Source: Hymenopus coronatus
Lineage: Eukaryota > Arthropoda > Insecta > Mantodea > Hymenopodidae
DNA: 64,000 nt
Assembly: GCA_030762935.1 (NCBI GenBank)
Contig: CM060887.1
Span: 9,664,501-9,728,500 of the forward strand
Reading direction: 5' to 3'
The notes beneath the pieces were generated by a model. It was not told the origin of the DNA. It made no database searches and saw nothing but the letters and a program-made list of their open reading frames with translations. Shown in pieces: positions 447-62,708 of the stretch. The translations under genes were made by a program, and so were the position numbers. Positions within the stretch are counted from its first letter, which is position 1. Each line of letters starts with the position of its first letter.

Positions 447-1249
447 TTTTTACTTTCTCTATACGTACTATGTACATAGTGCATAGAGAAGACATTGCAC
501 TCCACCCAAAAATTCGATACCTAGATTTCACCGGAAAAAATATGTTTTGGGGTCCCCTGTATAAAAAAAAGCATTTTCAGAAAAAGGTCCGTGTGTGCGT
601 CCGTGTCTGTGAACACGATAACTCAAGTCGGTAAAATACCAAAGTTGGTATTTAAGTTTGTTATCTTCCAGGGATGCGACATGAAGATTTTGAGAAAAAT
701 TCGACCACCCCAAACTACCCTTTACATGGAACTGTTTTCGAAAAGTTTGATGTTCTCAGAAATAACTAATGATTTTGATTAAAATATCGTATATTAAAGA
801 TATTTACCTGACAAATAAAATGTATATCTTGAATTTTCTGGGAATAGCCTCTTAAGACTGCTTTATCTGGGTCAATTTTACGGAATTTTGCATAACTGCT
901 AAACCGTAAGAGATGGACAAAAACTTAGCACACAAAAATGTAGAACACTTTAAAACACACAATTTATGTTATATGCATTTTTTTCATGAAGTGGATCGTT
1001 TTTGAGATATTCCTTATGTTTGGCTTCAGCTTTGAAAAACTTATACTTTTCTTATACAGGACTTTGCCAACTCCTGTCCATAGAAACAAAGGAACTCCCG
1101 TATTTAGGTTCTACTTACAAGGAAGTAAGTAATAAGACCATTTCTGCTATTTTTTTCTCGATTAGCATGGAGTAAATAGAAGCATAAGCTTTTTAACAAT
1201 AATTTGTTACAGAGATGTAGAAAAAATGATGTGAATGGAACACATCAGT
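447..1249 (+). mobile_element. R850 element, nearly complete, plus orientation
   Basis: Starts TTTTTACTTTCTCTATACG with the palindrome around 470-490 and ends in the 3' hairpin and CACATCAG at 1241-1248. No open frame. A short internal deletion precedes the CTCCCGTATTTAGG segment. Classed by comparison with about 45 other copies in this window. Confidence 0.9.
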
Positions 1250-3092
1250 GTTGGTTTCCGCACACGCCTTGCACTATACATAGCAGAGCAAGTAATTATT
1301 CCTGTCCGTGCTTCTCGTTGCCCTTTTGGTTGTGTTTTAACCCATTCCTGTTCTGATAAAGTAAAGCAAATACTTGTGCCTTCTCAGCATGTAGCAGTCT
1401 TATTTCTCGCAAGTTTTAAACACCCTCAGCAGTTGTAATGAAGATGAGAGTGAAGTTATGGCACAGAGCTGACTTTGCTTCATCCTCCATCTCCATTACC
1501 TCACTTGTGCAATCGCAGGCCTTTTACGAGTTTAATTATGAGATTTAGCAAATATTCATTACGCCGTTGCATTAATAAAATTGCCGTGTACGATTTCAGA
1601 CACACACAAGGCACAGAACATCTTGCACAAATGCAAGAAAGGAGGGGCGAAGCGGAAGAAACAGAACAAAGAAGAGAGGCCAACTGTATGTAAACCATAC
1701 ATATACTATAACATCTTTTGTGATTCCAGCCAACAAGACAAGCAAGAGAAAAGTTTCTTTTCCAACTCCGACGTTGTGCACGACTGGAGAACAAAGGAAA
1801 AGAGAAGGAGGGGTTTAAAAAATGGAAGAGAACGTACGACTGGGGCATAAAGGAGATAGAAACAATTAAGAAAGAAACCACGGAGCCAGAAAAGAAGGAA
1901 CCATTTCCATGATCTCTTGTCTTTTCTCTTTTTATGTTCCTACGTACCCCTACTGTGACTTATAATAATGGCATGGAGCCAAAGGAATAATCGTTCTAAG
2001 TCCTCGATCAAATCGGTTGGAGGTCGAAACCCTTTCTCCAATAAGAGTTAAATTCTTGTGTTTAGGATATGTCAATACAATACACAGCACATTTCCTTAA
2101 CGAGCGATCGTGTTTCAATAAAACGAAAAGAGTACACTAATTGGTAAACGAGATGTCGAGCTCTTAACGTTTTATCTTCATTGCCAATCAAGTTGGAACA
2201 GATGTAAAGTACAACTTTATAATACAATAAGCAAAGGAAACACACAACTTTCTCTACTCGTACTATATACATAGTGTCACTACTAAATTTGGACACAGGG
2301 AGGAATAGCTATTTGAAGGTGGTAAAAGGAAGACAGATGGTAGAGCAATGATAACAACGCAAAGGGAATCCTGATAATATAAATATATTGAGAAATAGCG
2401 AAAGGCAAATATACTTCACAATAAAATAGTAAGGTAAATTACAATAAACAAGACAAGCGTGTCAGGCGTTTCCTGTCGAGCGAGAACTATTTCCAAATAC
2501 CAAAGACAAGAATTGGTAAAATAGTTAATATACAACAAAAGGTTCTTACCTTTTAGGTTGATTAGCTCGATGAGAAGAAAGATGTGTGTCGGTATGGTAG
2601 CCAGTGACCCGGGGTGGGGCCTCGGACGTCCCTCGGGCAGCGAGTCTGCCTCTGTCAAGTACTGAGAATCAAAAGCGCCCGGAATTCAAGATTCCAGACA
2701 ATTTTATACTAGACAATTGTCTCTAGGGGACTCTTCATAATGTACGCCCAGGCTCTTAATAAATCCACCAATCAAAATACAGTATTTAAAAGATAAGACA
2801 GGGCTTCCTATATGACGTGCTTGGGATTAAAGTCTGTCCTAACCTACGAAATGCCACGTAGGTTCCGGGAAGTGGTTGAAAGCCCACGCAAGCCCATAAG
2901 TTGCAAAATGTGGTAAAATGTTGCATTAATCAGAGGAAGACACATCCGGTTATAATAACAAAGACAACGATAAAGCTTCCTCTTATTCAACCCAAGAATC
3001 CGCTTGTTAAGAAATACACACATTTATAAGAAAATGGAATTCTAAAACATTTACAATAATGTGACTTTGAACAAACAATAAACTAATTTAAA
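1250..3092. other. Unique intronic stretch, no gene seen
   Basis: Several overlapping ORFs of 60-126 codons between 1500 and 1881 show no recognisable domain and lie on both strands of purine-rich DNA. A GC-richer patch at 2590-2660 is not recognised. The only known item is a 35-bp R850 5' end at 2245-2279. Confidence 0.6.
2245..2279 (+). repeat. Solo R850 5' terminus (35 bp)
   Basis: ACTTTCTCTACTCGTACTAT and the rest of the palindromic R850 start are present, with nothing of the body after it. Confidence 0.7.
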
Positions 3093-3215
3093 AATACTCG
3101 TCAATCACATACGTGACAATAGCATAGAGAGAAAGTAATGCATTTCACCCAAAAATCAATACCGAAATTTCACCGGAAAGACACGTTTCAGGGTCTTCTG
3201 AATCCGAAAAAAAAA

Positions 3216-3907
3216 AAAATCTGATGTGTTTCATTCACATGACTTTCTCAACATCTCCGCAGAAATATTATTAAAAAACTTATGCTTCTATTTAATTTAT
3301 GCTAATCGAGAAAAATTTAGCAGAAATAGTCTTATTACTTGTTTCCTTGTGAGTAGAAGCGAAATAAGGGAGTACCCTAGGTTAAAGTGATGGTCAAAAG
3401 CTGGTTGCTATGGGACTGAAGTTCCCTTGTTTGTATGGATAGGAGTTGACACATTCCTGTGTGAGAAAAGTATAAGTTTTTCAAAGGTGAAACCAATAAT
3501 AAGAAACATCCAAAAACGATCAACTCCACGAACAAAATGTATGTTACATAAATTGTGTGTTTTAACATTTTTTGTGTGGTAAGTTTTTGTACATCCCTTA
3601 CGCTTTACCAGTTATGTAAAATTCCGTAAAATTCATCTAGAATAAAGTAGTCTTCAGAGGCTACTCCCAGAAAATTCAAGATATACATTTTATTTGTCAG
3701 GTAAATGGTTTTAATATAAGATGTTTTAATCAAAATCGTTAGAGCCATTTTTGAGAAAATCAAAATGTTCAAAAAATGTTCCATTTAAAGGGTAGTTGGG
3801 GGTTGGGGGATTTTCTTGAAAATCTTCCTGTCGCATCCTTGCAAGATACCAAACTAAATACCAAGTTTGGTATTTAACAGTATTTTCGGCTTTAAGCTAT
3901 GCTGTAC

Positions 3908-3980
<73 letters not shown>

Positions 3981-4124
3981 CCTTTGTGTAAAAATTCTTT
4001 TTTTTTGGGGGGGTTCAGGGGGACCCAAAACATGTATTTTCGGTGAAATCTTGGTATCGAATTTTTGAGTAGAATGCAATACTTTCTCTATACACTATGT
4101 ACATAGTACGTGTAGAGAAAGCAA
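3216..4124 (-). mobile_element. R850 copy nested in R850, minus orientation
   Basis: Full-length minus copy from the A run before TCTGATGTGTT to GTAGAGAAAGC. Its microsatellite is expanded as (GACA)n followed by (CA)n at 3905-3976. It sits in the A run of the host copy just before the GCATTTTT segment, and host sequence resumes with TTTTTTAGAAAAAA at about 4125. Confidence 0.9.
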
Positions 4125-4484
4125 AATTTTTTAGAAAAAAATGTCCGTGTGTCCTAGAACACGATATATCAAAAACAAAATGTCGGTAGAATACTAAACT
4201 TGGTATTTAAATGTAATATCTTCTAAGGATGCGACATGAATATTTTCGAGAAAATACCCCCACTTCAAATGGAAAACATTTATAGTAATTTTGATTGAAA
4301 TGTCACGTTATATAAATTTACATCAGAAATAAAATGTATATCTTGAATTTTCTGGTAATAGCCTCTGAAAGATCTTTTTGCTGAATGAATTTGCGAAATG
4401 TTGTAAAATTGGTAAACCGTAAGAGATGGACAAAAGCTTAACAAAAAATTTAGACCTCGTTAAAAACACAATTTATGTTATATA

Positions 4485-8561: not shown

Positions 8562-9363
8562 AAAAATCTGATGTGTTACATTTACATGACTTGCTCTACA
8601 TCTCTGTAGCAAATTATTGTTAAGCTTATTATTCTATATACTTCAGGTATTCAGGATAAACATTATCAGAAATAGTCTTATTACTTAGTTCCTTAAAAGT
8701 AGAACGGAAACAAGGGAATACACTAGGCTAAACGGACAGTCATATATTTTAAAATGTGGTTGCTATGGGATTGAAATCCGTTAAGTATTTTAAAAGAGAA
8801 ACCAATAACAAGAAACATCTTGGAAACGGCCAACTCTACAGCAAAAATTAATATAATATAAATGACGTGTTTTAACAAGATATATATTTTTTGTAGTAAG
8901 TTTTTGTCTATCTCTGTGTTTACTAGGTTTTCAAAATTTGGAAACATTTGACCAGAACGACCAGGTCTTCAGAAGCCATTCCCAGAAAATTCAAAATATA
9001 CATTTCATTCGCCACATAAATATCTATAATAATGGTACTTTAATAAAGATCGTTAGAGTCATTTTTGAGAAAACAAACATTTAAAAAAGGATAGTTTGAG
9101 GTGGGGGGTATTTTCTTGAAAATCTTCGTCTCATATCCTTGGAAGATAATAAACTTAAATACCAAGTTTGGTATTCAACTGTCTTTTAGTTTTTGAACTA
9201 TGCTGTCCACTGACACACACGGACCTTTTTCTAAAATGTTTGTTTTGGATTTAGAGGGTCTCAAAACATATATTTCCGGTGAAATCTCGGTATGGAATTT
9301 TTAGGTGCAATACAACATCTTCTCCAAACACTATGTACATAGTACGTGTAGAGAAAGTAAAAA
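8562..9363 (-). mobile_element. R850 element, minus orientation
   Basis: Runs from AAAAATCTGATGTGTTACA to GTGTAGAGAAAGTAAAAA with both termini. Slightly short in the middle. Joined directly to the next minus copy at 9364 through a shared A run, head to tail. Confidence 0.88.
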
Positions 9364-10310
9364 TATCTGTGTGTTCTGTGTCACTTTCTCTACCTTTTCT
9401 GCAAAAACTTATTCTTTTCTCTACTTCATACTAATCTGGATAAACATTAAAAGAAATGGTCTTAGTACTTACGAGCTACATTCGCGGAGTTTCTCATTGA
9501 TGTTGAAATAAAAGTAATTACGATGGAAACATGTGGTATAACCAATACTGACTGCACCAATTTTAGCTGCCCAAAGTGGTAGTTATACATGTTGGGGAGT
9601 CTTATACGAGGACTGTTTTTTTTTTTTTCTCAACTTCCGATAGGCTATAAATATAAGACAATTTCACAGAATACAATTATTTTATTACTAAAAGTTTTGT
9701 ACACTTATGTTTACTTTCCAACATAATCACCGAAAAGATTGAGACATGTATCGTACCTGTGTACAAGCTTTGCAATACCCGCTTCAAAAAATGTTACCGC
9801 CAATGATTTCAAATGAGCATTGACGTTGTTTTGTGTGGCACGCTTTTGTCTATCTGTTACGGTTCACCAGTTATTCAAAATTCCGCAAAACTCATCGAGA
9901 GTAAACATGTGTTGAGAGCTATTTCCAGAAAATTGAAGATATGCATTTTATTTGTCACATAAATATATTAAATATAGGGTATTTTAAATAAACACCGTTG
10001 GAGCCATTTTTGAGATAATCGAAATTTTCGAAAAATGTTGCATGTAAAATTTTCTTGAAAATCTTCATGTCGCATCCTGGGAAGATAACAAACTTAAATA
10101 TCAAGTTTGGCATTTAATGGTATTTTTGTTTTCGAGCTAAGCTGCCTACAAACACACACGTACACAAGGACAGTTTTCTAAAAATGCTTTTTTGGACTCA
10201 AAAGGTCTCAAAACATGTATTTCCAGTGAAATCTCGGTATGGAATTTTTGGGTGCATTACAATACCTTCTTTATACACTATGTACATACTACGTGTAGAG
10301 AAAGTAAAAA
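9364..10310 (-). mobile_element. Old R850 copy interrupted by a mariner fragment
   Basis: The 3' end is at 9364-9480, and the 5' two-thirds (from TTTTGTGTGGCACGC to ACGTGTAGAGAAAGT) at 9828-10310. The segment 9481-9827 includes the mariner tail at 9605-9827; 9481-9604 is not recognised. Confidence 0.75.
9605..9827 (-). pseudogene. Mariner transposase C-terminal fragment with TIR
   Basis: From 9827 down to the stop at 9711-9713 the minus strand encodes 38 codons including EAGIAKLVHRYDTCLNLFGD and the C-terminal YVGK, the usual mariner end (HRYDKCLN..GDYVEK). The outer end starts at TA CGAGGACTG (9605), like the mariner TIR at 63283. The rest of the transposase is missing. It belongs to the SETMAR-like mariner type, not to the 4485 element. 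Confidence 0.88.
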
Positions 10311-11519: not shown

Positions 11520-12343
11520 TTTTTACTTTCTCTACACGTACTATGTACATAGTGTACAGAGGAAGTATTGAATTCCACCCAAAACTTCGTACCAAGATTT
11601 TACCGGAAATACATGTTTTAGAACCCACTGAATCAGAAAAAAAACACTTTCAGAAAAAAGTCCGTGTGTGTGTGTGTCTGTCAGTCTGTCTGTGTGCGTG
11701 TCTTTGGATAGTATAGCTCAAAAACGAAAAGACCAAACTTGGTCTTTAACTTTTTTATCTTCCAAGAAGATTTTCAACTACCCTTTATATGGAACATTTT
11801 TCCAAAATGTTGATTTTCTCAAAACTGGCTCTAACGATTTTGATTAAAATATCGTCTGACAAATAAAATGTATATCTTAAATTTTCTGGGAATAGCCTCT
11901 GGAGAATACTTTATTCTGGATGAATTTTACGGAATTTTGAATAACTGCTAAACCGTAAGAGATGGACAAAAACTTACCACACGAAAAATGTAGAGCACGT
12001 TAAAACACACAATTTATAATATATACATTTTTTTCGTGGAGTTCATCGTTTTTGAGACATTCCTTGTTTTTGGTTTCTGCTTTGAAAAACGTATACTTTT
12101 CTCATACAAGAATTCGTCAACTCCTGTTCATACAAACAAAGGAACTTCAGTTACATAGCAACCAGCTTTTGATTATCAGTTTAACCTATGGTACTTCCTT
12201 ATTTCGCTTCTACTTACAAGGAGGCAAGTAATATGGCTATTTCTGCTAATTTTTTATTGATAAGCGTGAAGTAAATAGAAGTATAAGCTTTTTAAGAATA
12301 ATTTGTTGCAGAGATGTAGAGAACGTCATGTGAATCATCAGAT
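11520..12343 (+). mobile_element. R850 element, plus orientation
   Basis: Intact 5' palindrome (ACACGTACTATGTACATAGT) and body. The 3' hairpin is damaged: TGAATCATCAGAT replaces the normal loop and second arm. Confidence 0.92.
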
Positions 12344-14247
12344 TTTTCTGGGAAGTATTTGAAACAGTTGGGCTAGGGATTTTGAGCCGCAATGAGTCAT
12401 ATTTTCAAAGTGAAGTATGGTTTTTGAGTTTAGGCACTATCGTGGTCACGTAGAAGGGCCCACTTCCTAGGACCGTAGGTTCGTTTGATACATACACCGA
12501 GAGAGAGAGATAAGCCGGCATAACATGGCAAAGCTAATAAATTCCACCTCTGCTACTCTAACAAAAGAACCTCCGCCACAAAATGCGTGCAGGTCACATA
12601 AAAAAAACAAAATAAACCCGGCAGCATTTCACTGTGCCAGCTTATCTTTGGAATGGCCTCCGAGCCTGCAAATATGACCGTTAACATGCTTCCATGTATC
12701 TATTTTGGGATTCGTATACCTTTCTGGAAATCGTGAAAGAGGATAGAACGAGGGTTTTTATCACGCTCTCTGCCACGTCTTCCTCCAGAGTTCCTTTGTG
12801 CCGTACACACAAGGTTTATCCTCTTGGCTGCATAAAACAGAGTTGTAATGGAACGGTTGCTATGTAGAAGGCAACAATCAGAACAAACTCGGACTTTCAC
12901 GATTGTCTTCTCTGAAAGCGCAATTAAATAAACTGCCTCTGGTGTTTTCAAATACGTACTTGCCTTATTTTCTGGTGTTTTATTTACTGATAACAGCTTT
13001 AGGAATACCTGAATGTTCACTACATTAAAACAATTACAACTGTGCCCATTTTACAGCCTTAATTGCACATGTAGAAGCGATGTTATTTAGATAGAATACA
13101 AAGGTTTACATTTCAGCGCTTTCGTATGTGACCTAGAGATAAAAGTATACATTAATGGCATACAGAGAGAAAATCTGTAGTATGTATTGCGACTTTGTAC
13201 ACTTCATTCTGCGCTTTAAATCAATTTAACCTGTCGGAATGAAATGTTCAGATGTTTCACCCATTAGGGAGTCGAACACAAGGCATCTCTAATCTTTGGC
13301 AGTAGCAGCACCCACTGTACACACTCTAGTACTATAAAAATACGCCTGGCGCTGTGATTTTGCTGAAAATGTGAACATTTAACAGGGACTCGGGTATTTC
13401 CACAATTTTCATTGCTGCCATACCTCGCGAGTAAGAAAATGCAAAACTCATTGGGCAATCCACCCCTTCATCTATCACACCGCTCGACGCTCCGGCAGTA
13501 ATTTTTCCACCACATTTTGGCACCCGGTCAGAGTGGTGGATTATTGTCCAACCAGAAAGTTTAGGAATCACCAGTTCGCAACCCAAAACTTCTTTGTCGC
13601 AATTTACGTTTGTCAAATCCCTTCCCTTCGGTAACGTGGCCGTCCAATACGCTTTTAAGAGCATAGCAAACAGGTGAAAGACACGGGCGGAGCCAGCGAA
13701 AAGACCCCATCATTCGAAACTTAAGTATTTTACATTAACTGCCACGTATTCAAAACTGCTGAATCATAACATAGATCACTTAACAGATTTTCTTTAACAC
13801 ATGCGATATGCACTCGCTGATAAACTTTCAAAGAGAAGTACATTATAAGTTCAACTAAGCTTCCCTACAGTGTTGTCAACTCTATGCACATCATGGCTTA
13901 GTTTCCGAGGACAGTGGTAACACTCTGTCGCTGTCTTGTGTGTTATCAATAATAATAATATGTGTCATCGTTCATTTGTCTACCTCGGAGTCGGTCGAGA
14001 TTAGCACCCATAGACTCAAAATTAGAAGTACTTCACTTTGGATTCCACTAAATGAATACTTTTATTCTCCTTTGTTGCTGGTTGATCCACTAATGCTACG
14101 AGCGAATCCCGACATAAGCATTCTTGAAGACGTAGGAATAATAACTAGTGCTAATTTCTGCTGTTGCTAAGTTCTTGGTAATTACTGCGTACTTTTCTGT
14201 TGCGCGACAAATAACTCGTGCAACAACTACAATATCTCGCATAATAA
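12344..14247. other. Unique intronic stretch
   Basis: No known repeat except short purine tracts (12500). It includes the two longest unexplained minus-strand ORFs, 12700-13020 and 13332-13664. No splice-bounded exon of the semaphorin was found. Confidence 0.5.
13332..13664 (-). CDS. Unrecognised 110-codon ORF
   Basis: An open frame from ATG with a composition less AT-rich than its surroundings and a varied residue mix (one Cys-rich stretch, CGGKITAGASSG). No domain, signal peptide or membrane segment is evident, and there is no convincing AG acceptor just upstream. It could be a chance ORF, a decayed transposon piece or an unspliced exon. Listed only because it is the longest ORF in a repeat-free part of the window. 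Confidence 0.15.
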   Translation of the reverse strand: MLLKAYWTATLPKGRDLTNVNCDKEVLGCELVIPKLSGWTIIHHSDRVPKCGGKITAGASSGVIDEGVDCPMSFAFSYSRGMAAMKIVEIPESLLNVHIFSKITAPGVFL

Positions 14248-19635: not shown

Positions 19636-20484
19636 TTTTTTACTTTCTCTATGCGTACTATATACATAGTGTATAGAGAAGGTATTGTAATACACCCAAA
19701 AATTCGAAACCGAGATTTTACTGGAAATATATGTTTTGAGACCCCTGAATCCAAAAAAAGCATTTTTAGAAAAATGTACGCATGTGTGTGTGACTGTCTG
19801 TGTGTGTGACTGTCTGTGTGTGTGTGTGTGTGTGTGTCTGTGGGCAGCATAGCTCACGAAACGAAGATTTTCAAGAACATCCCCCCAACCCCAACTACCC
19901 TTCACGTGGAAAAAATTTCGAAAATTTTGGTTTTCTCAAAAATGGCTCTAAGGATTTTGATTAAAATATCGTATATTAAAGGCATTTACCTGACAATAAA
20001 ATGTATATCTTGAATTTTCTGGGAATAGCCTCAGAAGACTACTTTATTCTGGATGAATTTTACGAAATATTGCATAATTTCTGAACCGTAAGAAATGGAT
20101 AAAAACTTACCACACAAAAATGTAGAGCACGTTAAAACACACAATTTGTGTTATATACGTTATTTTCGTGGAGTTGATGTTTTTTTGCGAAATCCCTTGT
20201 TATTGGTTTCAGCTTTGACAAACTTACTTTTCTCATAGAGGAATTAGTCAACTACTGCCCATACAAACTAAGAAACTTCAGTCACATAGCAACCAACTTT
20301 TGTCTATCACTTTAATTTATGGTACCCCCTTATTTCGCTTCTACTTACAAGGAAGGAAGTAATAAGACTATTTCTGCTATTTTTTTCTCGATTAGCATGA
20401 AGTAAAAAAAAAAAAGCATAAGCTTTTTAATAAAATTTTTTGCAAAAATATAGAGAAAGCTATGTGAATGGAACACATCAGATT
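19636..20484 (+). mobile_element. R850 element, complete, plus orientation
   Basis: All landmarks are present: palindrome start, expanded GT/GTCTGT microsatellite (19786-19845), body, TAGAGAAAG and the ATGTGAATGGAACACATC hairpin. At 849 bp it is a good reference copy. Confidence 0.95.
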
Positions 20485-20487
20485 TTT

Positions 20488-23614: not shown

Positions 23615-25090
23615 TAAAATGTGGCTGCTATGGGATTGAAATCCGGTTCTTTGTGTGGCCAGGAGTATGAGAAAAGTTTAAGTATTTTAAAACTAAAACA
23701 ATTAACAAGGATTATCTCGAAAACTCCACGAAAAAAAATCTGATATGTTCCATTCACATGATTTTCTCTATATCTCTGCAGCAAATTATTGTTAAAAAGG
23801 TTATGCCTCAGTTTACTTCATGCTAATCGAGAAAAAAATATCAGTAATGCTCTTATTACTTGCTTTCATGCAAGGAAGCAGCATAGCCTAAGTATTAGTC
23901 AAAAGCTGGTTGCTATGTGACTGAAGTTCCTTTGTTTGTATGGACACGAGTTGACATATTTCGTATGAGAAATGTATGTTTTTCAAAGTTGAAACCAAAA
24001 ACAAGGAATATCTAAAAAACGATCAACTGCACGAAAAAAATGAATATTACATAAAGTGTGTGTTTTAGCGTGCTCTACATTTTTGGTGTGGTAAGTTTTT
24101 GTCCATCTCTTACGGTTTAGGAGTTATGTAAAATTCGCCCAGGATAGAGTAGTCTTAACAGGCTATTCCCAGAAAATTAAAGATATATATTTTATTTGTC
24201 ATGTAAACATCTTTTATATACGTTATTTTAATCAAAATCGTTAAATCCATTTTTGAGAAAATCAAACTTTTCGAAAATTTGTTCACCTAAAGGTACTTGG
24301 GGTGGGGGGATTTTCTTGAAAATCATCGTGTCGCATCCTTGGCAGTTACTGAACTTAAATACCAAGTTTGGCATTTAACAATCTTTTCCTTTTTGAGCTA
24401 TGATGCCCACAGACACACACACGCGCGCACACACACAGACACACTGACAGATGCAATTGACACACGGATATTTTTTTTAAAGATTTTTTTTGGGGGGGGG
24501 GATTCAAGAGGTCCTAAAACATGTATTTCCGGTGAAATCTCGATATCGAATTTTTTGGGTGCATTACAATACCTTCTCTATACACTATGTACATAGCACG
24601 TGCAGAGAAATTAAAAATGTATATAACATAAAAGATGTGTTTTAAGAAGATCTGTATTTTGTGTGGTAAGTTTTTGTCTCTTATGGTTTACCAGTTATGC
24701 AAAATTCAGAAAAATTCATCCAGAATAAAGTAGTCTTCAGATGCTATTTCCAGAAAATTCAAGATATACATTTTATTTGTCAGGTAAATATCTTCAATAT
24801 AAGAGATGTTAATCAAACTCGTTAGAGATATTTTTGAGAAAACCAACATTTTAGAATTTTATTCCATGTAAAGCATAGTTGGGGGTGAGGAGATTTTCTT
24901 GAACATCTTCGTGTCGCAGCCTTGTAAGATACTCAACTTAAGTATTAAGTTTAACAGACTTCATTTTTGAGATCCTTTTTTCTAAAAATGCTTTTTTTTT
25001 TATTCAGAGTGAAATCTCAGTATCTAATTTTGAATGCAAAACAATACCTTCTCTATGTATATTGGGTACACAGTAGAGAGAGAGTAAAAA
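23615..25090 (-). mobile_element. R850 host copy (minus) carrying a nested minus R850
   Basis: Host blocks 23615-23727 and 24616-25090 join to one minus copy without its 3' end. The 5' end reads TTGGGTACACAGTAGAGAGA, a worn palindrome, followed by a run of 19 A that merges with the next plus fragment. Confidence 0.85.
23726..24615 (-). mobile_element. R850 copy nested in R850, same orientation
   Basis: Full copy from AAAATCTGATATGTTCCATT to GTGCAGAGAAATTAAAAA, inserted in the host A run between CTCCACG and ATGTATATAAC. The microsatellite region has CGCG-containing CA repeats (24414-24470). Confidence 0.9.
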
Positions 25091-28249: not shown

Positions 28250-28250
28250 T

Positions 28251-28392
28251 TTTCACTTTCTCTATACGCACTATGTACATAGTGTATAGAGAAGGTATTG
28301 TATTGCACCCAAAAATTCGATACCGAGATTTCACCGCAAATATATGTTTTAGGGTCCCCAATATCCAAAAAAAAAGCATTTTCACAAAAAGG

Positions 28393-35142: not shown

Positions 35143-35144
35143 TT

Positions 35145-35192
35145 TTGAGCATGCAACCCACAGACACACACACGGACATTTTTCTAAAAATG

Positions 35193-46690: not shown

Positions 46691-46746
46691 GAGACATATT
46701 TAAACGAGGTAAACCTAGCCAAATAGTACAACTACGGAATATGCAT

Positions 46747-47513
46747 TTTTAGTTTCTCAATACGCACTGTGTACATAGTGTATAGAGAAGGTATTGCAAT
46801 GCACTCAAAACATCGAAACTGAGATTTCACCGGAAATAATGTTTTGGGTCTTCAGAAAAAGGTGCGTGTGTGTGTTCCTGTGTCTGTGAACACGATAAGT
46901 TAAAACGAAAAGTCGGTAAAACACCAAATTGGCATTTAAAATTAGTAATTTCCAAGGATGCGACACGAAGCTTTTGAGGAAAACTACCCTTTAGATGGAA
47001 AAAGTTTCTAAATTTTGGAATTTTTCAAAAATCACATTAAGGATTTTGATACAAATCCTGTACATTAAAGATATTTACGTTATAAATAAAATGTATACTC
47101 TGAATTTTCTGCGAATAGCCTCTAAGGTCTCCTTATTTCGAATGAATTTTGCTGAATTCTGCATAGCTGGTAAACAGTATGAGATAGACAAAAACTTGCT
47201 ACACAAAAATAAAGATCTTGTTAAAATACTTCCTAGTTATTTGGTTTCAAATTAAAATACTTAAGTTTTCTCATGTGGAAATTTTTCAATTCCTGCCCAC
47301 ACAACAAAGGAATTTCAAAGGCAATTCAATTTAAAAGATTTGACTATCGCTTTAGCCTAATATACCCCTTATTTCCGTTCTTCTTACAAGGAAGGTATAT
47401 CTAGACTATTTCTGTTAATTTTATCTCAATTAACATGAAGTAGATACAAGAATAACATTTAACAATAATTTGTTGCAGATATGTAGAAAAAGTCATGTGA
47501 ATGAGACACATCA
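46747..47513 (+). mobile_element. R850 element, older form, plus orientation
   Basis: Starts TTTCTCAATACGCACTGTGTACATAG and ends GTCATGTGAATGAGACACAT. Numerous substitutions and a deletion of the TTCCTTG block. Confidence 0.9.
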
Positions 47514-47664
47514 AAGTTTTTTTATATACTTCCAAAGCCTAATCAAGCAAATTGTTGAGAATACATGATTGGTTGGAACAGAGTTAAATCTTACGAAATA
47601 CTTGCATTAGATTTAGTTCACTAAGAATCAAAGCTGTCAAATACCTTGGATTGTGATTTAAACA

Positions 47665-48764: not shown

Positions 48765-49116
48765 AACAGTTTTAAAGGTCTTTCAATTATATCGGCCGTG
48801 AAAGCTTTCTGGTAGGTAGAATAACACAAGTTCAACTTTTAGTCTTTTGTTGCGTTTTGTGTTAAACATCCTACATATATTTGAAGCAGTGAAGCGTACG
48901 ATATTTACTCCCTTACATTACAGCCTCTTAATCTTTCCCCCCATTCATCTCAATTGTGTGGCATTCCTTTTCATGCTTTTATTCTCAGCATTTATTCTGA
49001 CCGCATTCTCCCATTACTTTTCTGCTTTGCCCTTGTTTTGTTTTTGTTAAGAACGTTCCATTTGCCTTTTTTTTTTTATTTTTTTTTTTTAACAGTCTGT
49101 TACTCTTTATTCCTTT
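48765..49116. other. Unique stretch, nothing recognised
   Basis: Pyrimidine-rich, with long T runs at 49069-49090. Confidence 0.45.
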
Positions 49117-50076
49117 TTTACTTTCTCTACACGTACCATGTACATAGTGTATAGGAAGGTATTGCACTCCACCGACAAATTCGATATCCAGATTTCACCG
49201 AAAATATATGTTTTAGGGTCCCCTGTACCCAAAAAAAAAATTAGAAAAAGGTCCGTGTGTGTCCTGTGTCTGTGAACAAGATAACTCAAAAACGATAAGT
49301 CGGTAAAATACCAAACTTGGTATTTAAGTTTAGTATCCTGCAGGTATGCGACACGAAGATTTTGAGAAAAATCCACCACCCCAAACTACCCTTTACATGG
49401 AAAAATTTTAAAAAATTTTGATTTTATTAAAAATGGCTGACGATTTTGATTAAAATCACGTATATTATTTGCACCCCCAATAAAATGTACATCTTGAATA
49501 TTCTGGGAATAGCTTCTGAAAACCTCTTTATTCTGAATGAATTTTGCCGAATTTCGCCTAACTGCTAAACCGTAAGAGATGGACAAAAAGTTACCATACA
49601 GAAAATGTAGAGCACGTCAAAACTGACAATATACTTATCATACATTTTTTTCGAGGTGTTGATCGTTTATGAGATATTCCTTGTTATTAGTTTCCGCTTT
49701 TCTCATACAGGAATTTGTCAACTCCAGTTCATACAAACAAAGGAGCTTCAACTACATAGCAACCGCTTTTGACTATCACTTTAACCTATGGTACTCCCTT
49801 ATTTCACTTCTACTGACAAGGAAGCAAGTAATAAGACTATTTCTGCTAATTTTTTCTCGATTGGCATTAAGTAAATAGAAGCATAAGCTTTTTAACAATA
49901 ATTTGTTGCTGAGATGTAGGGACACACACACGGACCTTTTTGTGAAAATGCTTTTTTTTTTAATACAGGGGACCTTAAAACATATATTTCCGGTGAAATC
50001 TCGGTATCGGTTTTTTGGTGGAGTGCAATACATTCTCTATACACTAGGTTCATAGTGAGTATAGAGAAAGTAAAAA
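49117..50076 (+). repeat. R850 plus copy fused to a minus 5' fragment
   Basis: The plus copy 49117-49919 has its palindrome but stops at GCTGAGATGTAG, losing the terminal hairpin. From 49920 a minus 5' piece (GGACACACACACGGACC) runs to AGAGAAAGTAAAAAA at 50076. Confidence 0.88.
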
Positions 50077-50941
50077 ATCTGCTGTGTACCATTCACATGA
50101 CATTCTCTATATCCCTGAAACAAATTATTCTTAAAAAGATTATACTTCTATTAACTTCATACTAATCAGTAAAACATTACCAGAAATAGCCATATTACTT
50201 ACTTCCTTGTAAGTAGAGGTGAAATAAGGGAGTTCCATAGGTTAAAGTGATAATCAAAAGCTGGTTGCTATGTCACTGAAGTTCCTTTGTTTGTATGGAC
50301 AGCAGTTGACAAATTTTTGTATGAGAAGTGTACAAGTGTTTCATAGCAGAAACCAAAAATAAGGAATGTCACAAAAACGACGAACTCCACAAAAAAAATG
50401 TATATAACATAAATTGTGTGTTTTAACGTGCTCTACATTTTTTGTTTAGTAAGTTTTTGTCCATCTCTTACGGTTTAGCAGTTATTCAAAATTTAGTAGA
50501 ATTCATCCAGAATAAACTACTCTTCAGAGGCTATTCCCAGAAAATTCAAGATATACATTTTATTTGTCAGGTAAATACCTTTAATATACGAAAATTTAAT
50601 TAAAATCATTAGAGCCATTTTTGAGAAAATCAAAATTTTCGAAAAAAATTCCATGTAAAGGGTAGTTGGGGGTGGGGGGATTTTTCTCATAATCTTCGTG
50701 TCGCATCCCTGGAAGATACTTAACTTAAATACCAAGTTTGGTATTTTACCTACTTTTCGTTTTTGAGTTATCGTGTTCACGGGCACACGGACACACACAC
50801 GGACCTTTTTCCGAAAATGATTTTTTTAGATAAAGGGGACCCTAAAACATATATTTCCGGTGAAATCTCGGTATCGTATTTTTTGGTGGAGTGCTATACA
50901 TTCTCTATACACTATGTACATAGTGCCTATAGAGAAAGTAA
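50077..50941 (-). mobile_element. R850 element, complete, minus orientation
   Basis: From ATCTGCTGTGTACCATTCAC to CCTATAGAGAAAGTAAAAA, all landmarks present. Joined head to tail with the minus fragment on its left. Confidence 0.93.
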
Positions 50942-52508
50942 AAATTAGCAACGTGCCCCTATGTGTGTGCCTGTGGATAACATAGCTCAAAAACGAAAAG
51001 TCCTTTAAATACCAAATTTGATATTGAATTCATCATTTTCCAAAGATGCGACACAAAGGTTTTCAAGAATATCCCCCACCCCTAACTATCCTTTACTTGA
51101 AAAAAAATTGAAAAAATGATTTTGATCAAAATACAGTAAGTTGAAAATATTAAATGTCAAATAAAACGTTTGTCTTGAATTTTCTGCAAATAGCTTCTGA
51201 AAACTACTTCATTCCGGATGACTTTTGATGAATTTTGCTGAATAATGCATTTATGGTAAACTGTAAGAGACACACAAAAACTTACTACACAAAAGATACA
51301 TATCTCGTTAAAACAGAAAATTTACGTCATATAGGTACATTTTTACTTTCTCTATACGTGCTATGTACACCGTGTATAGAGAAGGTATTGCACTCCACTC
51401 AAAAATTCGATACCGATATTTCACCGGAAATACGTTTTGAGACCTCCTGAATCCAAAAAAGGCATTATTAGAAAAATGTCTGTATGTCTTTCTGTCTGTC
51501 GATCTGTGTGGGCAGCATAGCCCAAAAACGAAAAGTCCGTTGAAAACCAAACTTGGTATTTGGGTTTGGTATATTCCAAGGATGCGACAGGAAGATTTTC
51601 AAGAAAACCCCCCCACTCCCCACTACCCTTTACATGGAGCTTTTTTTCGAAAATTTTGATTTTCTAAAAAATAACTAACGATTTTGATTAAAATGTCGTA
51701 CATTAAAGATATTTACCTGACAAATATGTATATTTTGAATTTTCTAGGAATAGCCTCTGAAGGCTACTTTATTCTGGATGAATTTTGCGTAACTACTAAA
51801 CCGTGAGGGATCTGTAAAAACTTAACCCACAAAAAATGTAGAGCACGTTAAAACACACAATTTATGTCATATGCCTTTTATTTCGTTGAGGTGATCGTTT
51901 TTGAGATATTCCTTGTTTTTGGTTTCAGCTTTGAAAAACTTATACTTTTCTCATACAGGTGTTTGCCAACTCGTATCCATACAAACAAAGGAACTTCAGT
52001 CACATAGCAACCAGCTTTTGACTATCCCTTTAACATATGGTACTCCCTTATTTCGCTTCTACTTACAATAAAGCAAGAAATAAGACTATTTCTGCTAATT
52101 TTTCTCGATTAGCATGAAATAAATAAAAGAATAAGGTTATTAACAATAATTTGTTACAAAGAAATAGAGAAAGTCGTGTGAATGAAGCACATCAGATTTT
52201 TTGTGGAGTTGACCATTTCTTCTTATTCGTATCAGTTTAAAAGGCTTAAACTTTTCTCATACGGGAACTTGTTAAATAGTGGCCAAGCAAAGAGTCGGGT
52301 TTCAATCCCATAGCAACCACATTTTAAAACATTTGACTATCGGTTTAGTCTAGTGTATTCCCTTATTTCCCTTCTACTTATAAGGAACTATGTAATAACA
52401 CTGTTTCTGTTAATATTTATCTCGAATTGGGAAATAGAAGAATAAGCTTTTAAACAATAATTTGTTACAGAGATGTAGAGAAAGTCATGTGAATGTAACA
52501 CAGCTGAT
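50942..52508 (+). mobile_element. R850 host copy (plus) carrying a nested plus R850
   Basis: Host blocks 50942-51339 and 52198-52508 join at ATATAGGTACA/TTTTTTGTGGAGTTGACC. The host lacks its palindrome, is diverged, and ends GTCATGTGAATGTAACACAG. Confidence 0.9.
51340..52197 (+). mobile_element. R850 copy nested in R850, same orientation
   Basis: Complete copy from TTTTACTTTCTCTATACGTG to GTCGTGTGAATGAAGCACAT plus CAGAT, placed in the host T run before CGTGGAG. Confidence 0.93.
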
Positions 52509-53334: not shown

Positions 53335-54902
53335 CGTCTTCGTATTCCATATGTAGATAAACATTAGCAGAAATGGTTTTATTACTTAGTTTCTTATAGG
53401 TAGGACGGAAATAAGAGAATACCATAGGCTAAAGTGATAGTCAAAAGCCAGTTGTTATGTGATTGAAGTTCCTTTGTTTATATGGACAGGAGTTGACAAA
53501 TCTCGTACGAGAAAAGTATAGGCATTTTAAAACTGAAATCAATAAAAAGGAATATCTTAAACGGCAACTCCACGAAAAAAATGAATATTACATAAATAGT
53601 GTGTTTTAACAAGCTCTACATTTTCTGTTAAGTAAGCTTTACTTTCTCTATACGTACTATGTACATAGTGTATAGAGAAGGTAATGCATTGTACCATACC
53701 AAGATTTCACCGGAAGTACATGTATTGAGACCACCTGAATCTAAAGAAAGCATTCTTAAAAATGTCCGCGAGTGTCTGTCTGTGTGTGTGTCTATGGGCA
53801 GCATAGCTCAAAAACGAAAAGACTTGGTATTTAAGTTCAGTATCTTCCAAGGATGCGATATGAACATCCACCTCCAACTACCCTTCACATGGAAAATGTT
53901 TCGAAAATTTTGATTTTCTAAAAAATTTGATTTTCTAACGATTTTGATAGAGATATACATTAAAATATATACTTGACAAATAATATGCATATCTTGAATT
54001 TTCTGGAAATAGCCTCTGAAGACTACTTTATTCTGGATGAATTTCACGGAATTTTGAGTAACTGGTAAACCGTAAGAGATAGACAAAAACATACCACACA
54101 AAAAATGTATAGCACATTAAAATCCACTATTTATATTATATAAATGTTTTTCGTGGAGTTGGTCATTTTTTAGATAATTCTTGTTTTTTTTTGTTTCAGC
54201 CTTAAAAAACTTATACTTTTCTCATACAGGAATTTGTCAACTCCTGTCCATACAAACAAAGGAACTTCAGTCACTAGCAACTAGCTTTTGACTATCACTT
54301 TAACCTATGGTACTCCCTTATTTCGCTTCTTCTTACAGGGAAGCAAGTAATAAGACTTTCTGCCAATTTTTTTCTAACTTAGCATGAAGTACATAGAAGC
54401 ATAAACTTTTTAACAAACATTTATTGCAGAGATATAGAGAAAGTCATTTGAAGGATAATATCAGATGTTTTGTCTAACACTTACGGTTTATCAGTTATGC
54501 AAAATTCCGCAGAATTCATCCAGAATAACCATGTCTTCAGAGGCTATTCCCAGAAAATTGAAGATATACGTTTTGTTTGTCATATAAATATCTTATATAT
54601 AAGAGATTTTAATCAAATTCGTTAGAGCCATTTTTGAGTAAATCAAAATTTGGAGGTGGGGGAATTTTCTTGAAAATCTTCGTATCGCATCCTTGGAAGA
54701 TACCAAAGGTTTTTCGTTTTGGAGCTATGCTGCCTCCGCCCCCCACAAACACACATATACGCACACGCACGGAGGGTTTTCTAAAAATTTTACTTGTTTT
54801 AGAGCGTCTCAAAACATGTATTTCCAGTGATATATCGTTATCGAATTTTTGAGTGCAATAGAATACCTTCTCTATACATAATACCTGTAGAGAAAATAAA
54901 AA
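53335..54902 (-). mobile_element. R850 host copy (minus) split by a nested plus R850
   Basis: Host blocks 53335-53637 and 54470-54902. The host lacks its 3' end and ends at a worn palindrome (CTCTATACATAATACCTG). Confidence 0.88.
53638..54469 (+). mobile_element. R850 copy nested in R850, opposite orientation
   Basis: Starts TTTACTTTCTCTATACGTAC; the 3' hairpin is partly lost (GTCATTTGAAGGATAATATC). Inserted in the host T run of AAGTTTTTGTC; host resumes TTTTGTCTAACACTTACGG. Confidence 0.9.
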
Positions 54903-55405: not shown

Positions 55406-55786
55406 TGTGGGCAACATAGCTCAAAAACGAATATTCCGTTAAACACCAAACTTAGTATTAAGGTTTCCTATCTTCCAAAGATGCGACACGATGATTTTCA
55501 AGAAAATCCCCCACCCCAACTACCTAACACGTGGACAAAATTTCGAAAGTATTGATTTTCTCAAAAATGACTAAAAGATTTTGATTAATATCTCGTATAT
55601 TTAGGATATTTACGTGACAAATAAAATGTATATGTTGATCTTTCAGGAACTAGCCTCTGAAGACCTCTTTATTCTGGATGATTTTTATTGAATTTTTCGT
55701 AACTGGTACACCGTAAGGGTTAGACAAAAACTTAATACACAAAAAATGTAGATCACGATAAAACACAGTTTATATCATATACATTT
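55241..55786 (+). repeat. R850, plus orientation, 3' part missing
   Basis: From a worn palindrome (CATGTGTATAGAGAAGG) with long (GT)n at 55370-55404 to ATCATATACATTTTT, where the next copy starts. Confidence 0.88.
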
Positions 55787-56653
55787 TTACTTTCTTTAGA
55801 CGTACTATGTACACAGTGTATAGAGAAGCTATTGTAATGTACTAAAAAATTCGATACAGAGATTTCACCGAAAATACATGTTTTGAGACCCCCTGAACCA
55901 AAAAAAAACTTTTTATAAAAATGTGCGTGTGTGTATGTGTGTGTGTCTGTTAGCAGCATAGCTCAAAAACAAGAAGTCCGTTTAAAACCAACCTTGGTAA
56001 TTAGGCTTGGTATCTTCCATTGATGCGACACGAAGATTTTCAAGAAAATCCCTCCACACTCCAACTACCTTTTACATGGAACTTTTTTTCGAATTTTTTT
56101 ATTTTCTCAAAAATGGCTCTGACGATTTTGATTAAAACATCGCATATTAAAGATATTTACTTGATAAATGAAATGTATATCTTGAATTTTCTGGGAATAG
56201 CTTTTGAAGACTACTTTATTATGGATGAATTTTACGGACTTTTGCATAACTGCTAAACCGTAACAGGTGGACAAAGCTTAATACACAAAAAATATAGATC
56301 ACATTAAAACACACACTTTATCTAATACTCATTTTTTTCGTGGAGTTGATCGTTTTTGAGATATTCTTTGTTAATGATTTTAGCTTTGAAAAGCTTATAC
56401 TTTTCTCATACAGGAATTTGTAAACTCCAGTCCATACAAACAAAGGAACATCAGTCTCATAGCAACCAGCTTTTGACTATCACTTTAACCTATGGTACTC
56501 CCTTATTTCGCTTCTACTTACAAGGAAGCAAGTAATAAGACTATTTCTGCTAATGTTTTCTCGATTAGAATGAAACAAGTAGAAGCATAAGCTTTTTAAC
56601 AATAATTTGTTGCAGAGAGGTAGAGAAAGCTATGTGAATGTAACACATCAGAT
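55787..56653 (+). mobile_element. R850 element, complete, plus orientation
   Basis: From ACTTTCTTTAGACGTACTAT to GCTATGTGAATGTAACACAT plus CAGAT. Inserted at the T run where the upstream copy breaks off. Confidence 0.93.
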
Positions 56654-56671
56654 TTTTTTCGCTTTTTTTTA

Positions 56672-60705: not shown

Positions 60706-60934
60706 GCCGCGCCGTGGCCGAGTGGTCAGACCATTCGCCTCTCACCTGGGTTCGACCCCAAGCGACCGCATGTGAGATTTGTGGTATACAAAGCGGCGCA
60801 GGGGCGGGTTTTCTCTGGGTTCTCCGGTTTCCCCCGCCATCACATTCCCCCAGGACTCCATCTTCATGTATCAGCAGTGTTACCGCCTGCGGTGCCATTG
60901 CAGTAAACGTGGGCGTTATACAATACCTACCCTT
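60706..60934 (+). mobile_element. tRNA-derived SINE (family D)
   Basis: Head GTGGCCGAGTGGTCAGACCA (A box) and CTGGGTTCGACCCC (B box), a Leu/Ser-tRNA shape, then a GC-rich body and a short tail. Likely 10-bp duplication TATATCTTCG (60696-60705) / TATGTCTTCG (60935-60944), one mismatch. Confidence 0.85.
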
Positions 60935-61011
60935 TATGTCTTCGTTCGCAGTCTGGGAGTATCATGCTAGCTTCTGGTTCTCAAGGTCGCAGTTTAAACA
61001 CGCTGATGGAT

Positions 61012-61614
61012 TTTTTAGGAGTAGAACAAAAGAAAAACGGACACTTCCTGTCTGAGAAAAGTATAAGTACTTCACGACTGAAACTAATAAAAGGAATACC
61101 TCGAAAACGGTAAGCTCCATGAAAAAAAAAATGTATAGGACATAACTTGTGTATTTCAACAAGATCTACATTTTTTGTATAGTAAATGTTTGTCTATCTC
61201 TTACGGTTAACTAGTTATGCCAAATTAAGCAAAATTCATCCAGAATAGTCTTTAGAAGCTATTCCCAGAAAATTCAAGATACACATTTTATTTGTGATTG
61301 AAATGGCTTTAATATGTGGCATTTTAATCAAAATCGTTAGAGCCGTTTTAAGAAAAGCAAAATTATGGAAAAATTTTCCATGTAAAGGGTAGTTAGGAGT
61401 GGGGGAATTTTCTTGAAAATCTTCGTGTCGCATCGTTGGAAGATACCAAACTTAAATACACACACATACGGACCTGTTTCTGAAAATGCATTTTTTTGGA
61501 TTCAGGGGGTCCTAAAATATGTATTTCCGGTGAAATCTCGACATCGAACTTTTGGCTGGTATACAATATTTCCCCATTCCTATGTAAATTGTATATACGG
61601 GGCTAGAGAAAGTA
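61012..61614 (-). repeat. R850, subtype B, minus orientation, 3' end missing
   Basis: From the AAAAACGGACACTTCCTGTC segment to TATATACGGGGCTAGAGAAAGT, the B-type palindrome end. A deletion at 61459 removes the second palindrome region. Confidence 0.9.
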
Positions 61615-61856
61615 AAAAAAAAAAAAAACTTTCCCTTCATCCATTTCACCGTTACTTTATATCATCTGCTCACTCTCATTCCAGGCTTCGCGCTGATCAC
61701 CCATCCTGGCTACTTTTTCTGATCCAGAGCATCTGTTCAATAGATGTCTGACCCCAGGCGCTAGCGTGTAATTCCTGGAGGGTGTAAGACCTACATACGA
61801 TGAGAGTAAATACGGAAAGCAGAAACTAACAAAAAGAATAGTTTACAGAAGGTATA
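61615..61856. other. Unique spacer between R850 copies
   Basis: No recognised feature. Confidence 0.4.
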
Positions 61857-62708
61857 TAAAAATCTGATGTGTTACACTCACATGACTTTCTCTACATCTC
61901 TGCATCAAATTATTGTTAAAAAGTTTATACTTCTATTTACTTCATGCTAATCAACAAAAAATTAGCAGGAATAGTCTTATTACTTGCTTCCTTGTAAGTA
62001 GAAGCCAAATAAGGGAGTACCATAGGTTAAAGTGATAGTCAAAAGCTGGTTGCTATGTGACTGAATTTCCTTTATTTGTATGGACAGGAGTTGAAATATT
62101 CCTGTATGAGAAAAGTCAAGTTTTTCAAAGCTTAACCCAAAAACAAGGAATATTTAAAAAACGATCAGCTCCACGAAACGATGTATACAACATAAATTGT
62201 GTATTTTAATGTGCTGTACATTTTTTGTGTTCTTACGGTTTAGTAGTTATAACAAATTCAGTAAAATTCACTCAGAATAAAGTAGTCTTCAGAGGCTATT
62301 CCCAGAAAATTCAAGATATACATTTTATTTGACAGGTAAATATCTGTAATACACGATATTTTATTCAAAATCGTTAGAGCCATTTTTAAGAAAATCAAAC
62401 TTTTCAAAAAAAGTTCCATGTAAAGGGTAGTTTGGGGTGGGGGGATTTTTCTCAAAATCTTCGTGTCGCATCCCTGGAAGATAGCAATCTTAAATACCAA
62501 GTTTGGTATTTAACGGTCTTTTCGTTTTGGAGCTATGCTGTCTACAGACACAGACACACACACGGACCTTTTTCTGAAAATACATTTTTTTTTTTTATAC
62601 AGGGGACCCTAAAACATATATTTCCGGTGTCATCTCGGAATCGAATTTTTTGGAGGAGTGCAATACTTTCTCTATACACAATGTACACAGTACGTGTAGA
62701 GAAAGTAA
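61857..62708 (-). mobile_element. R850 element, complete, minus orientation
   Basis: From AAAATCTGATGTGTTACACT to ACGTGTAGAGAAAGTAAA, 852 bp with all landmarks. Confidence 0.94.

What the first reader, a model, noticed from the sequence alone, without database searches (positions are those of the whole stretch)
447..62708. R850: a dominant 850-bp non-coding family with Helentron/HINE architecture
About 45 pieces cover roughly 29 kb of 64 kb by hand count. The 5' end ACTTTCTCTA reappears inverted (TAGAGAAAGT) about 27 bp inside the 3' end, so the terminal repeats are asymmetric. A small hairpin (ATGTG..CACAT) follows the inner 3' copy, a GT microsatellite lies inside, ends are bordered by T runs, no target duplication is evident, and copies join head to tail (8562-10310, 49920-50941, 55241-56653). 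This set of traits defines Helentron-derived HINEs such as DINE-1. I recognise no described family with this sequence.
Basis: partly seen in the sequence, partly recalled or inferred. Interest (0 to 1): 0.85.

Follow-up and report, generated by a model that had tools for sequence, protein, structure and literature searches.

The report
Half-million-copy rolling-circle transposon passenger
The window is packed with a short non-coding mobile element of the Helentron (rolling-circle) kind; sampling suggests it makes up about a sixth of this 3.1-billion-base animal genome, and its decayed protein-coding parent element can still be recognised.

Summary
One 874-bp non-coding family ("R850") covers 27,957 of 64,000 bp, with 17 near-complete copies. 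Flanks of 24 complete copies show no target duplication beyond the T-run. Five copies nested in older R850 copies give clear empty sites in T-runs. In the source genome (3.13 Gb) an exact 35-position 3'-end pattern occurs 38,457 times, reversed control 0. Sampling 133,845 bp gives about 17% of the genome (11-24%), roughly 500,000 copies. I also found the probable autonomous partner: a decayed class encoding DUF6570, Helitron Rep, PIF1 helicase and, where read, an AP-type endonuclease. Its 3' end is the R850 terminus, and 14 of 22 other loci found stop there. Its 5' portion is R850 itself, T-run included at one locus. The 20 best Rep loci are unrelated Helitrons. Verdict: a new, very abundant HINE family with its Helentron. 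Dfam and Repbase were not searchable.

The parts
447..1253 (+). R850 copy, near complete
3215..4126 (-). R850 copy, complete; nested in a T-run of an older + strand R850 copy
8562..9363 (-). R850 copy, complete; its 5' end abuts the 3' end of another copy (tail-to-head, one shared T-run)
9829..10310 (-). R850 5' part (consensus 1-507) of the copy lying upstream of 8562-9363
11520..12347 (+). R850 copy, complete
19637..20487 (+). R850 copy, complete, with GT/CTGT array 19783-19842
23734..24617 (-). R850 copy, complete; nested at consensus 548-553 T-run of an older copy
28250..29113 (+). R850 copy, complete, with (GT)n 28396-28442
30774..31626 (+). R850 copy, near complete, damaged 5' tip
32090..32953 (-). 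R850 copy, complete; nested in a T-run of an older + strand copy
34264..35146 (+). R850 copy, complete, variant 5' loop (CTAGCCCCGTAT)
46746..47520 (+). R850 copy, complete, most diverged of the complete ones (71.5%)
49115..49922 (+). R850 copy, lacks last 31 bases
49924..50076 (-). R850 5' fragment (1-152) whose 5' T-run is shared with the 3' end of 50073-50944
50073..50944 (-). R850 copy, complete, tail-to-head with 49924-50076
51340..52201 (+). R850 reference copy, nested in an older copy (50962-51344 + 52215-52512)
51340..51344 (+). 5' T5 border
   Evidence: sequence
51345..51357 (+). 5' subterminal repeat ACTTTCTCTATAC
   Evidence: sequence
51374..51386 (+). inverted arm of the 5' hairpin, GTATAGAGAAGGT
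52165..52174 (+). 3' subterminal repeat TAGAGAAAGT
52176..52192 (+). 3' palindrome (ATGTG..CACAT in the consensus; one base changed in this copy)
52193..52201 (+). CAGA plus 3' T-run border
53636..54470 (+). R850 copy, complete; nested at consensus about 490 of a - strand copy (53359-53640 / 54468-54902)
55784..56657 (+). R850 copy, complete; inserted at the internal T-run of 55254-55788 (not a tail-to-head join)
61858..62711 (-). R850 copy, complete

Best explanation
R850 is a non-autonomous Helentron-associated interspersed element (HINE) that multiplied by rolling-circle copying with proteins supplied in trans by a Helentron family (here 'H3'). Inferred cycle: the Rep domain recognises and nicks the T-bordered 5' end (subterminal repeat plus hairpin); the PIF1-type helicase peels off one strand while it is replicated; the 3' subterminal repeat, palindrome and CAGA signal termination; and the single-strand copy is joined into a T-run, possibly opened by the endonuclease, without target duplication. 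H3 carries an R850-like segment, with a decayed and T-less copy of the 3' module, as its own 5' portion, and ends in the same 3' terminus. R850 is therefore either the 5' part of H3 ending at an internal terminator, or a HINE that was read through into an adjacent Helentron and so became its 5' end. Shown: anatomy, T-run targeting, absence of target duplication, abundance by sampling, shared ends and coding content of H3. Inferred: the biochemical steps and the direction of derivation.
For: Anatomy and ends. No target duplication in 24 complete copies: 6 of 24 share 3-4 flank bases, against about 4.8 expected from re-paired flanks. Empty-site matches for 9 of 24 complete copies, five of them clear insertions into T-runs inside older copies. 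Abundance: 38,457 exact 35-position 3'-end matches, control 0; 17.4% of 133,845 sampled bp, bootstrap 11-24%, with 22 5' ends and 21 3' ends. Partner: locus C11 has, in order on one strand, an R850 segment (consensus 312-867), a DUF6570 ORF (E 3e-10), Rep (PF14214), PIF1 (618-aa open frame), an endonuclease PF14529 (E 4e-7, over cut-off), and R850 consensus 839-874 as its last 36 bases. Of 22 other loci whose 3' region matches, 14 stop at query 630-634, the R850 terminus being 631. Of 33 H3 Rep places made, 9 have Rep, PIF1 and 3' region in order on one strand. Three of three loci read at the 5' side have the R850-to-Helentron junction at the same place. At C12 the R850-type 5' terminus with T-run is complete (alignment score 55, best of 500 shuffles 27) and the flank beyond it is not R850 (score 19, best of 100 shuffles 25).
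Against: The endonuclease was seen at one H3 locus only; a genome-wide search for it did not complete. Both ends were read on different H3 loci (5' at C12, 3' at C11), never on one. 8 of the 22 other loci stop elsewhere: two run 12 bases further (643) and six stop short. The H3 copies read are diverged (R850 part 75-80% identical to the R850 consensus), so the >95% identity between HINE and partner that PMC4067079 reports for its pairs is not met. R850 3' ends are so common (about one per 6 kb) that one near a Helentron could be chance; the repeated boundary argues against it. The 3' palindrome is intact in 15 of 26 3' ends, I saw no compensatory change there, and the 3' end does not fold better than shuffles (z -0.27).
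Confidence: 0.93

Rival explanations
1. R850 is the non-autonomous form of a canonical Helitron (5'-TC, 3'-CTRR, insertion in AT).
For: The genome holds two ~5.2-kb Helitron families with strong Rep domains; they account for all 20 best Rep loci.
Against: 15 of those 20 loci show TCAGCTAG at the 3' boundary, the other five being truncated or cut, and their starts (TATATATATAAAA where complete) do not resemble R850. R850 ends CAGA plus T-run and inserts in T-runs.
Confidence: 0.02
2. R850 belongs to a Helitron2-type element: asymmetric terminal repeats and palindromes but a Rep/helicase without endonuclease.
For: PMC4067079 describes such elements with similar asymmetric ends; the endonuclease was seen at one H3 locus only.
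Against: At C11 the endonuclease (PF14529, over cut-off) lies between PIF1 and the R850-type 3' end on the same strand. The distance from Rep to the 3' region there is 3.5 kb; it is 3.4-3.8 kb at five further loci, 4.4 and 2.5 kb at two and 6.4-14.9 kb at the others, so most leave room for an endonuclease, which was not read there.
Confidence: 0.04
3. R850 is a MITE or other terminal-inverted-repeat transposon moved by a DDE transposase (a mariner remnant lies in the window).
For: Inverted termini; mariner transposase remnant at 4537-4896.
Against: The inverted repeats are not at symmetric positions, there is no target duplication, and the partner with the same 3' boundary encodes Rep, PIF1 and endonuclease.
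Confidence: 0.01
4. The density reflects a satellite or local amplification in this window, not a genome-wide transposon.
For: The window is 2.5-fold richer in R850 than the sample (44% against 17%); tail-to-head joins exist.
Against: 38,457 exact 3' ends genome-wide, 19,202 and 19,255 on the two strands; 12 of 20 random 1.5-kb stretches contain R850; the 24 complete copies have different flanks. Joined copies in L013 differ in divergence (90% and 78%), which fits serial insertion in T-runs.
Confidence: 0.01

Closest known systems
DINE-1 / INE-1 of Drosophila (HINE; PMC4067079)
   Same: Non-coding; about 13-bp 5' subterminal repeat with a nearby inverted arm; microsatellite; inverted 3' copy followed by a stem-loop; T-rich targets; no target modification; outnumbers its partner.
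   Different: R850 is an estimated 17% of a 3.1-Gb genome; PMC4067079 gives DINE-1 as 9.2% of the D. melanogaster dot chromosome.
HINE-Mo families of the mite Metaseiulus occidentalis (PMC4067079)
   Same: Subterminal repeats of 12-15 bp, 3' palindrome, T-rich targets, empty sites without duplication.
   Different: Mite subterminal repeats are themselves palindromic and lie 38-60 bp from the 3' end; R850's is not palindromic, its 3' copy ends 27 bp from the end, and it has a separate 5' inverted arm.
Cg_HINE of the Pacific oyster (PMC7492417)
   Same: 5' subterminal repeat plus complementary arm plus microsatellite in the left part; subterminal repeat plus palindrome in the right part.
   Different: Oyster elements carry tandem satellite-like repeats in the middle and their authors could not link a partner; R850 has a non-tandem middle and a linked partner.
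Autonomous Helentrons (Rep/helicase/endonuclease), e.g. Helentron-Mo, Helentron-Cq, Helentron-Da (PMC4067079)
   Same: Domain order Rep, helicase, endonuclease (endonuclease at one locus here); ends shared with the HINE.
   Different: The three H3 loci read at the 5' side carry a HINE-like unit, including a decayed 3' module, as their 5' portion.
Canonical Helitrons H1/H2 in the same genome
   Same: Rep and PIF1 helicase.
   Different: CTAG-type 3' end, no shared termini. Endonuclease was not searched for in them beyond three ORFs (none found).

Membership tests
HINE (non-autonomous Helentron) | Lacks coding capacity | tested here: met
   Longest ORFs within R850 are about 137 aa; two of them searched against 5.8 billion proteins gave none at E<=0.01
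HINE (non-autonomous Helentron) | 11-15 bp subterminal inverted repeats, asymmetric | tested here: met
   ACTTTCTCTACA / TGTAGAGAAAGT, 12 bp; directly after the T-run at 5', ending 27 bp inside the 3' end
HINE (non-autonomous Helentron) | Stem-loop or palindrome near the 3' end | tested here: met
   ATGTG-7 nt-CACAT in the consensus, intact in 15 of 26 3' ends; the DNA fold of the 3' end is not better than shuffles (z -0.27), so it rests on sequence
HINE (non-autonomous Helentron) | T-rich target and T-run borders | tested here: met
   22 of 28 and 20 of 26 ends have T>=4; five clear empty sites in T-runs
HINE (non-autonomous Helentron) | No target site duplication | tested here: met
   24 complete copies, flank sharing at chance level; a duplication of pure T cannot be told from the border
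HINE (non-autonomous Helentron) | Shares termini with an autonomous Helentron | tested here: met
   3' boundary at 14 of 22 other loci; 5' terminus at one locus; R850 segment next to the coding part in 3 of 3 loci; both ends not read on one element
HINE (non-autonomous Helentron) | >95% identity to the partner (as in the published pairs) | tested here: not met
   75-80%; 14 R850 copies average 83% pairwise. A trait of the pairs described in PMC4067079, not part of the structural definition
DINE-1 sensu stricto (Drosophila) | 5' inverted arm beside the subterminal repeat | tested here: met
   GTATAGAGAAGGT, 16 bp after the repeat
DINE-1 sensu stricto (Drosophila) | Conserved DINE-1 core sequence | not testable with these tools
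   No Drosophila DNA, Dfam or Repbase available
Helentron (partner H3) | Rep plus PIF1 helicase plus C-terminal AP endonuclease | tested here: met
   One locus, C11:16910229-16914318; Rep-PIF1-3' order at 9 of 33 Rep places. That the endonuclease is in one frame with the helicase was not tested
Canonical Helitron | 5'-TC, 3'-CTRR, AT target (recalled definition) | tested here: not met
   R850 ends CAGA plus T-run
MITE / DDE transposon | Symmetric terminal inverted repeats and fixed-length target duplication | tested here: not met

The most novel reading that the evidence does not exclude
R850 arose when copying of the parental Helentron stopped early: H3 carries, about 860 bp from its 5' end, a module resembling its own 3' terminus, and a version with the full CAGA-TTTTT became a working terminator. 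The runaway 5' segment then multiplied about ten-thousand-fold over its parent, to half a million copies and about a sixth of a 3.1-Gb animal genome. That would be HINE birth by internal termination, caught with parent and product in one genome.
Probability: 0.35. Interest if true: 0.72.

Novelty: new member of a known kind. Interest (0 to 1): 0.55.

Why it matters
Published figures seen here for all Helitrons together are 6% of the Myotis and 6.62% of the Heliconius genome (PMC4067079) and 7-20% of the repeat fraction in grasshoppers (PMC7486953). One HINE family at about 17% of a 3.1-Gb genome would be an extreme case and a natural test of what limits rolling-circle elements. Having the parent Helentron with the HINE-like unit built in makes two rival routes of HINE origin (internal termination or read-through) directly testable by phylogeny. 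It also shows how an element that prefers T-runs offers new targets for itself by nesting in its own copies.

Tried and rejected
Canonical Helitron parentage: the 20 best Rep loci were compared with R850 and with each other; they form two families with CTAG-type ends, so I rejected them. Homologues in phages, plasmids, viral contigs and prokaryote genome contigs: none (two distant-DNA searches, two exact patterns), as expected for animal DNA. R850 reading frames as proteins: no homologue at E<=0.01. End sequences as text in 5.39 million papers: 2 papers, both judged unrelated from title and start of abstract. 'Helentron' with 'cockroach': no paper. 5' hairpin: the arms vary, mostly without compensation. 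Of seven diverged copies folded, three keep a clear hairpin (34264 z -3.9, 21195 z -4.1, 35338 z -2.8) and four do not stand out (25090 -1.5, 54902 -1.7, 7474 -1.4, 61618 +0.6), so evidence is mixed. Rolling-circle concatemers as source of the tail-to-head joins: not needed, since T-run targeting explains them, but not excluded. A first look for the R850 5' end in L058 was negative because that locus starts inside the R850 segment; it was read correctly only. The sample for the 17% estimate is 20 flanks of Helitron loci plus 20 random stretches from 12 contigs whose lengths I knew; window, Helitron bodies and loci fetched by R850 itself were left out.

Full report
What was checked. A consensus of 874 bp from 14 copies covers 27,957 of 64,000 bp at E<=1e-4, with 17 of 90 pieces longer than 800 consensus bases and no hit on three shuffled windows. 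Pairwise identity among the 14 copies averages 83% (range 75-90%). There are 28 recognisable 5' ends and 26 3' ends.

Anatomy. 5'-TTTTT-ACTTTCTCTAYAC-(16 nt)-GTATAGAGAAGGT-...GT array...-TGTAGAGAAAGT-C-ATGTG-(7 nt)-CACAT-CAGA-TTTTT-3'. The first 48 bases form a hairpin on the consensus (19 pairs with a 2-nt bulge, z -5.7). The 3' subterminal repeat is the inverse of the 5' one over 12 bases. T-runs of at least four border 22 of 28 5' ends and 20 of 26 3' ends, against 2.2% of positions in the window. In 24 complete copies from window and genome, exactly five Ts precede ACTTTC in 13. Variants exist: GATAACTC or CATAGCTC after the GT array, and a different 5' loop, CTAGCCCC. Hairpin evidence in diverged copies is mixed (3 of 7 clear). 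The 3' palindrome is intact in 15 of 26 3' ends and the 3' end does not fold better than shuffled sequence.

Insertion. Flanks of the 24 complete copies share no duplication beyond the T-run: 6 of 24 show 3-4 shared bases, against 4.8 expected with re-paired flanks. Joining flanks gave an empty-site match for 9 of 24. Five are clear: copies at 3215, 23734, 32090, 51340 and 53638 sit in T-runs inside older R850 copies, and the target continues on both sides; of the other four, two are tail-to-head joins and two are weak. In the four clear cases with uninterrupted runs, Ts on both sides together exceed the target's run by 4, 5, 6 and 10, so either the element brings about five Ts or a T-only duplication exists; homopolymer cannot tell. 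Tail-to-head joins at 9363, at 50073 and in L013 consist of one shared T-run. Insertion into the terminal T-run of an existing copy explains them: in L013 the two copies are 90% and 78% like the consensus. The join at 55784 is an insertion into an internal T-run.

Genome. The window is C8:9664501-9728500 of a 3,126,739,099-bp assembly. An exact 35-position 3'-end pattern has 38,457 matches, the reversed control none; in the window that pattern finds 1 copy, although 26 3' ends are recognisable. In 20 random 1.5-kb stretches R850 covers 19.7% (9-31%; 12 of 20 hit). Together with 103,845 bp of flanks of 20 Helitron loci it is 17.4% of 133,845 bp (11-24%), with 22 5' ends and 21 3' ends, scaling to about 0.54 Gb and about 500,000 copies. 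The window (44%) is a rich spot. The estimate includes diverged relatives down to about 67-70% identity.

Partner. PF14214 finds 112 Rep pieces. The 20 best loci are two families of about 5.2 kb, 9 and 11 loci; 15 of 20 show TCAGCTAG at the 3' boundary, the rest being truncated or cut, i.e. canonical Helitrons without R850 ends. Searching the genome with one of their Reps left weaker PF14214 places unmatched (compared by eye). One of these (L057) defined a third class, H3, with 50 matches. At C11, on one strand: R850 consensus 312-867 (L058:1-539, 76%), a 291-aa ORF with DUF6570, Rep at 16910229-16911106, PIF1 at 16912188-16912802 in a 618-aa open frame, endonuclease PF14529 at L059:2-319 (30.4 bits, cut-off 27.4), and R850 consensus 839-874 at L059:1195-1230 (89%, E 9e-9), where only the last 36 bases match. 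Solo 3' matches of 50 nt or less are 8 of 62 3' ends seen, this one included, so one such match alone would be weak. The test is the boundary. With L059:600-1700 as query (707 first-look candidates, 40 scored), 43 matches came back; 26 lie in the H3 part, at the query locus and 22 others. Of the 22, 14 stop at 630-634, where the terminus is 631; two stop at 643 and six earlier. Thirteen of the 24 matches used (query included) have an H3 Rep upstream on the same strand within 20 kb. Nine of 33 H3 Rep places have Rep, PIF1 and 3' region in order (lists chosen as told).

5' side of the partner. With L058:560-2060 as query, 11 matches besides the query itself, of 51 in all, reach the first base, so similarity may go on upstream. 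Two more loci were read: L060 has R850 728-862 and L061 has R850 23-549 and 747-863, both followed by the same Helentron sequence as L058. In all three the R850 3' module is present but decayed, and lacks the T-run (GAGARAGTCATGTGAATGGAACAC..CAAGAC or close to it). At C12 the segment starts with TTTTTTT-AATTTATCTACACGCACTATG, an R850-type 5' terminus (score 55; best of 500 shuffles 27), and the flank beyond is not R850. So, pieced together from different loci, the Rep/PIF1/endonuclease element begins with R850 and ends with the R850 terminus.

How it works. Known for the kind (PMC4067079): Helentrons are rolling-circle elements with Rep/helicase/endonuclease, and HINEs are their non-autonomous derivatives, inserting in T-rich DNA without duplication. 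Applied here, Rep acting on the 5' end, strand peeling, stopping at the 3' module and joining into T-runs are inferred. The internal, T-less 3' module of H3 suggests that R850 is what is copied when replication stops there; the reverse (read-through from an R850 into a neighbouring Helentron) is equally compatible with my data.

Limits. Dfam/Repbase and related species were not available. The endonuclease was seen at one locus. No H3 locus was read from end to end. Papers: PMC4067079 by passages and section 8; PMC7486953 and PMC7492417 by passages; others only in listings.

Noticed in passing
window 4537-5590 (-): Mariner-family transposase remnant; C-terminal piece 4537-4896 is 80% identical to an insect protein whose source name is 'Mariner Mos1 transposase'; N-terminal piece 5309-5590 recognised by eye.
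   Followed up: partly
window 16860-17117 (-): ORF resembling a piggyBac-type transposase start, by eye only.
   Followed up: no
window 59305-59677 and 18057-18331: Two-copy tandem repeats of 193 and 148 bp.
   Followed up: no
window 33908-34047: Perfect 69-bp tandem duplication, its start overlapping an R850 fragment, so probably recent.
   Followed up: no
window 41002-41590: Rearranged R850 fragments in which an (ATT)n array stands where other copies have the GT array.
   Followed up: no
window 14171-14467, 35701-36009, 60589-61055: ORFs that look like translated short interspersed repeats; the first two share the motif SYTQGRGFKPGGGRWIFSG. Interpretation by eye.
   Followed up: no
L017-L036: Two canonical Helitron families of about 5.2 kb, 9 and 11 loci, with Rep and PIF1; in L036 one appears to sit inside an R850 copy (by eye).
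   Followed up: partly
L059:1227-1330: The sequence just 3' of the C11 Helentron is itself a repeat; several other places match from inside the R850-like 3' end on into it (query 596-710), so this T-run seems to have been hit more than once.
   Followed up: no
L060: Uninterrupted AC array of about 750 bp, running off the fetched stretch, directly before the R850 segment of a Helentron copy.
   Followed up: no
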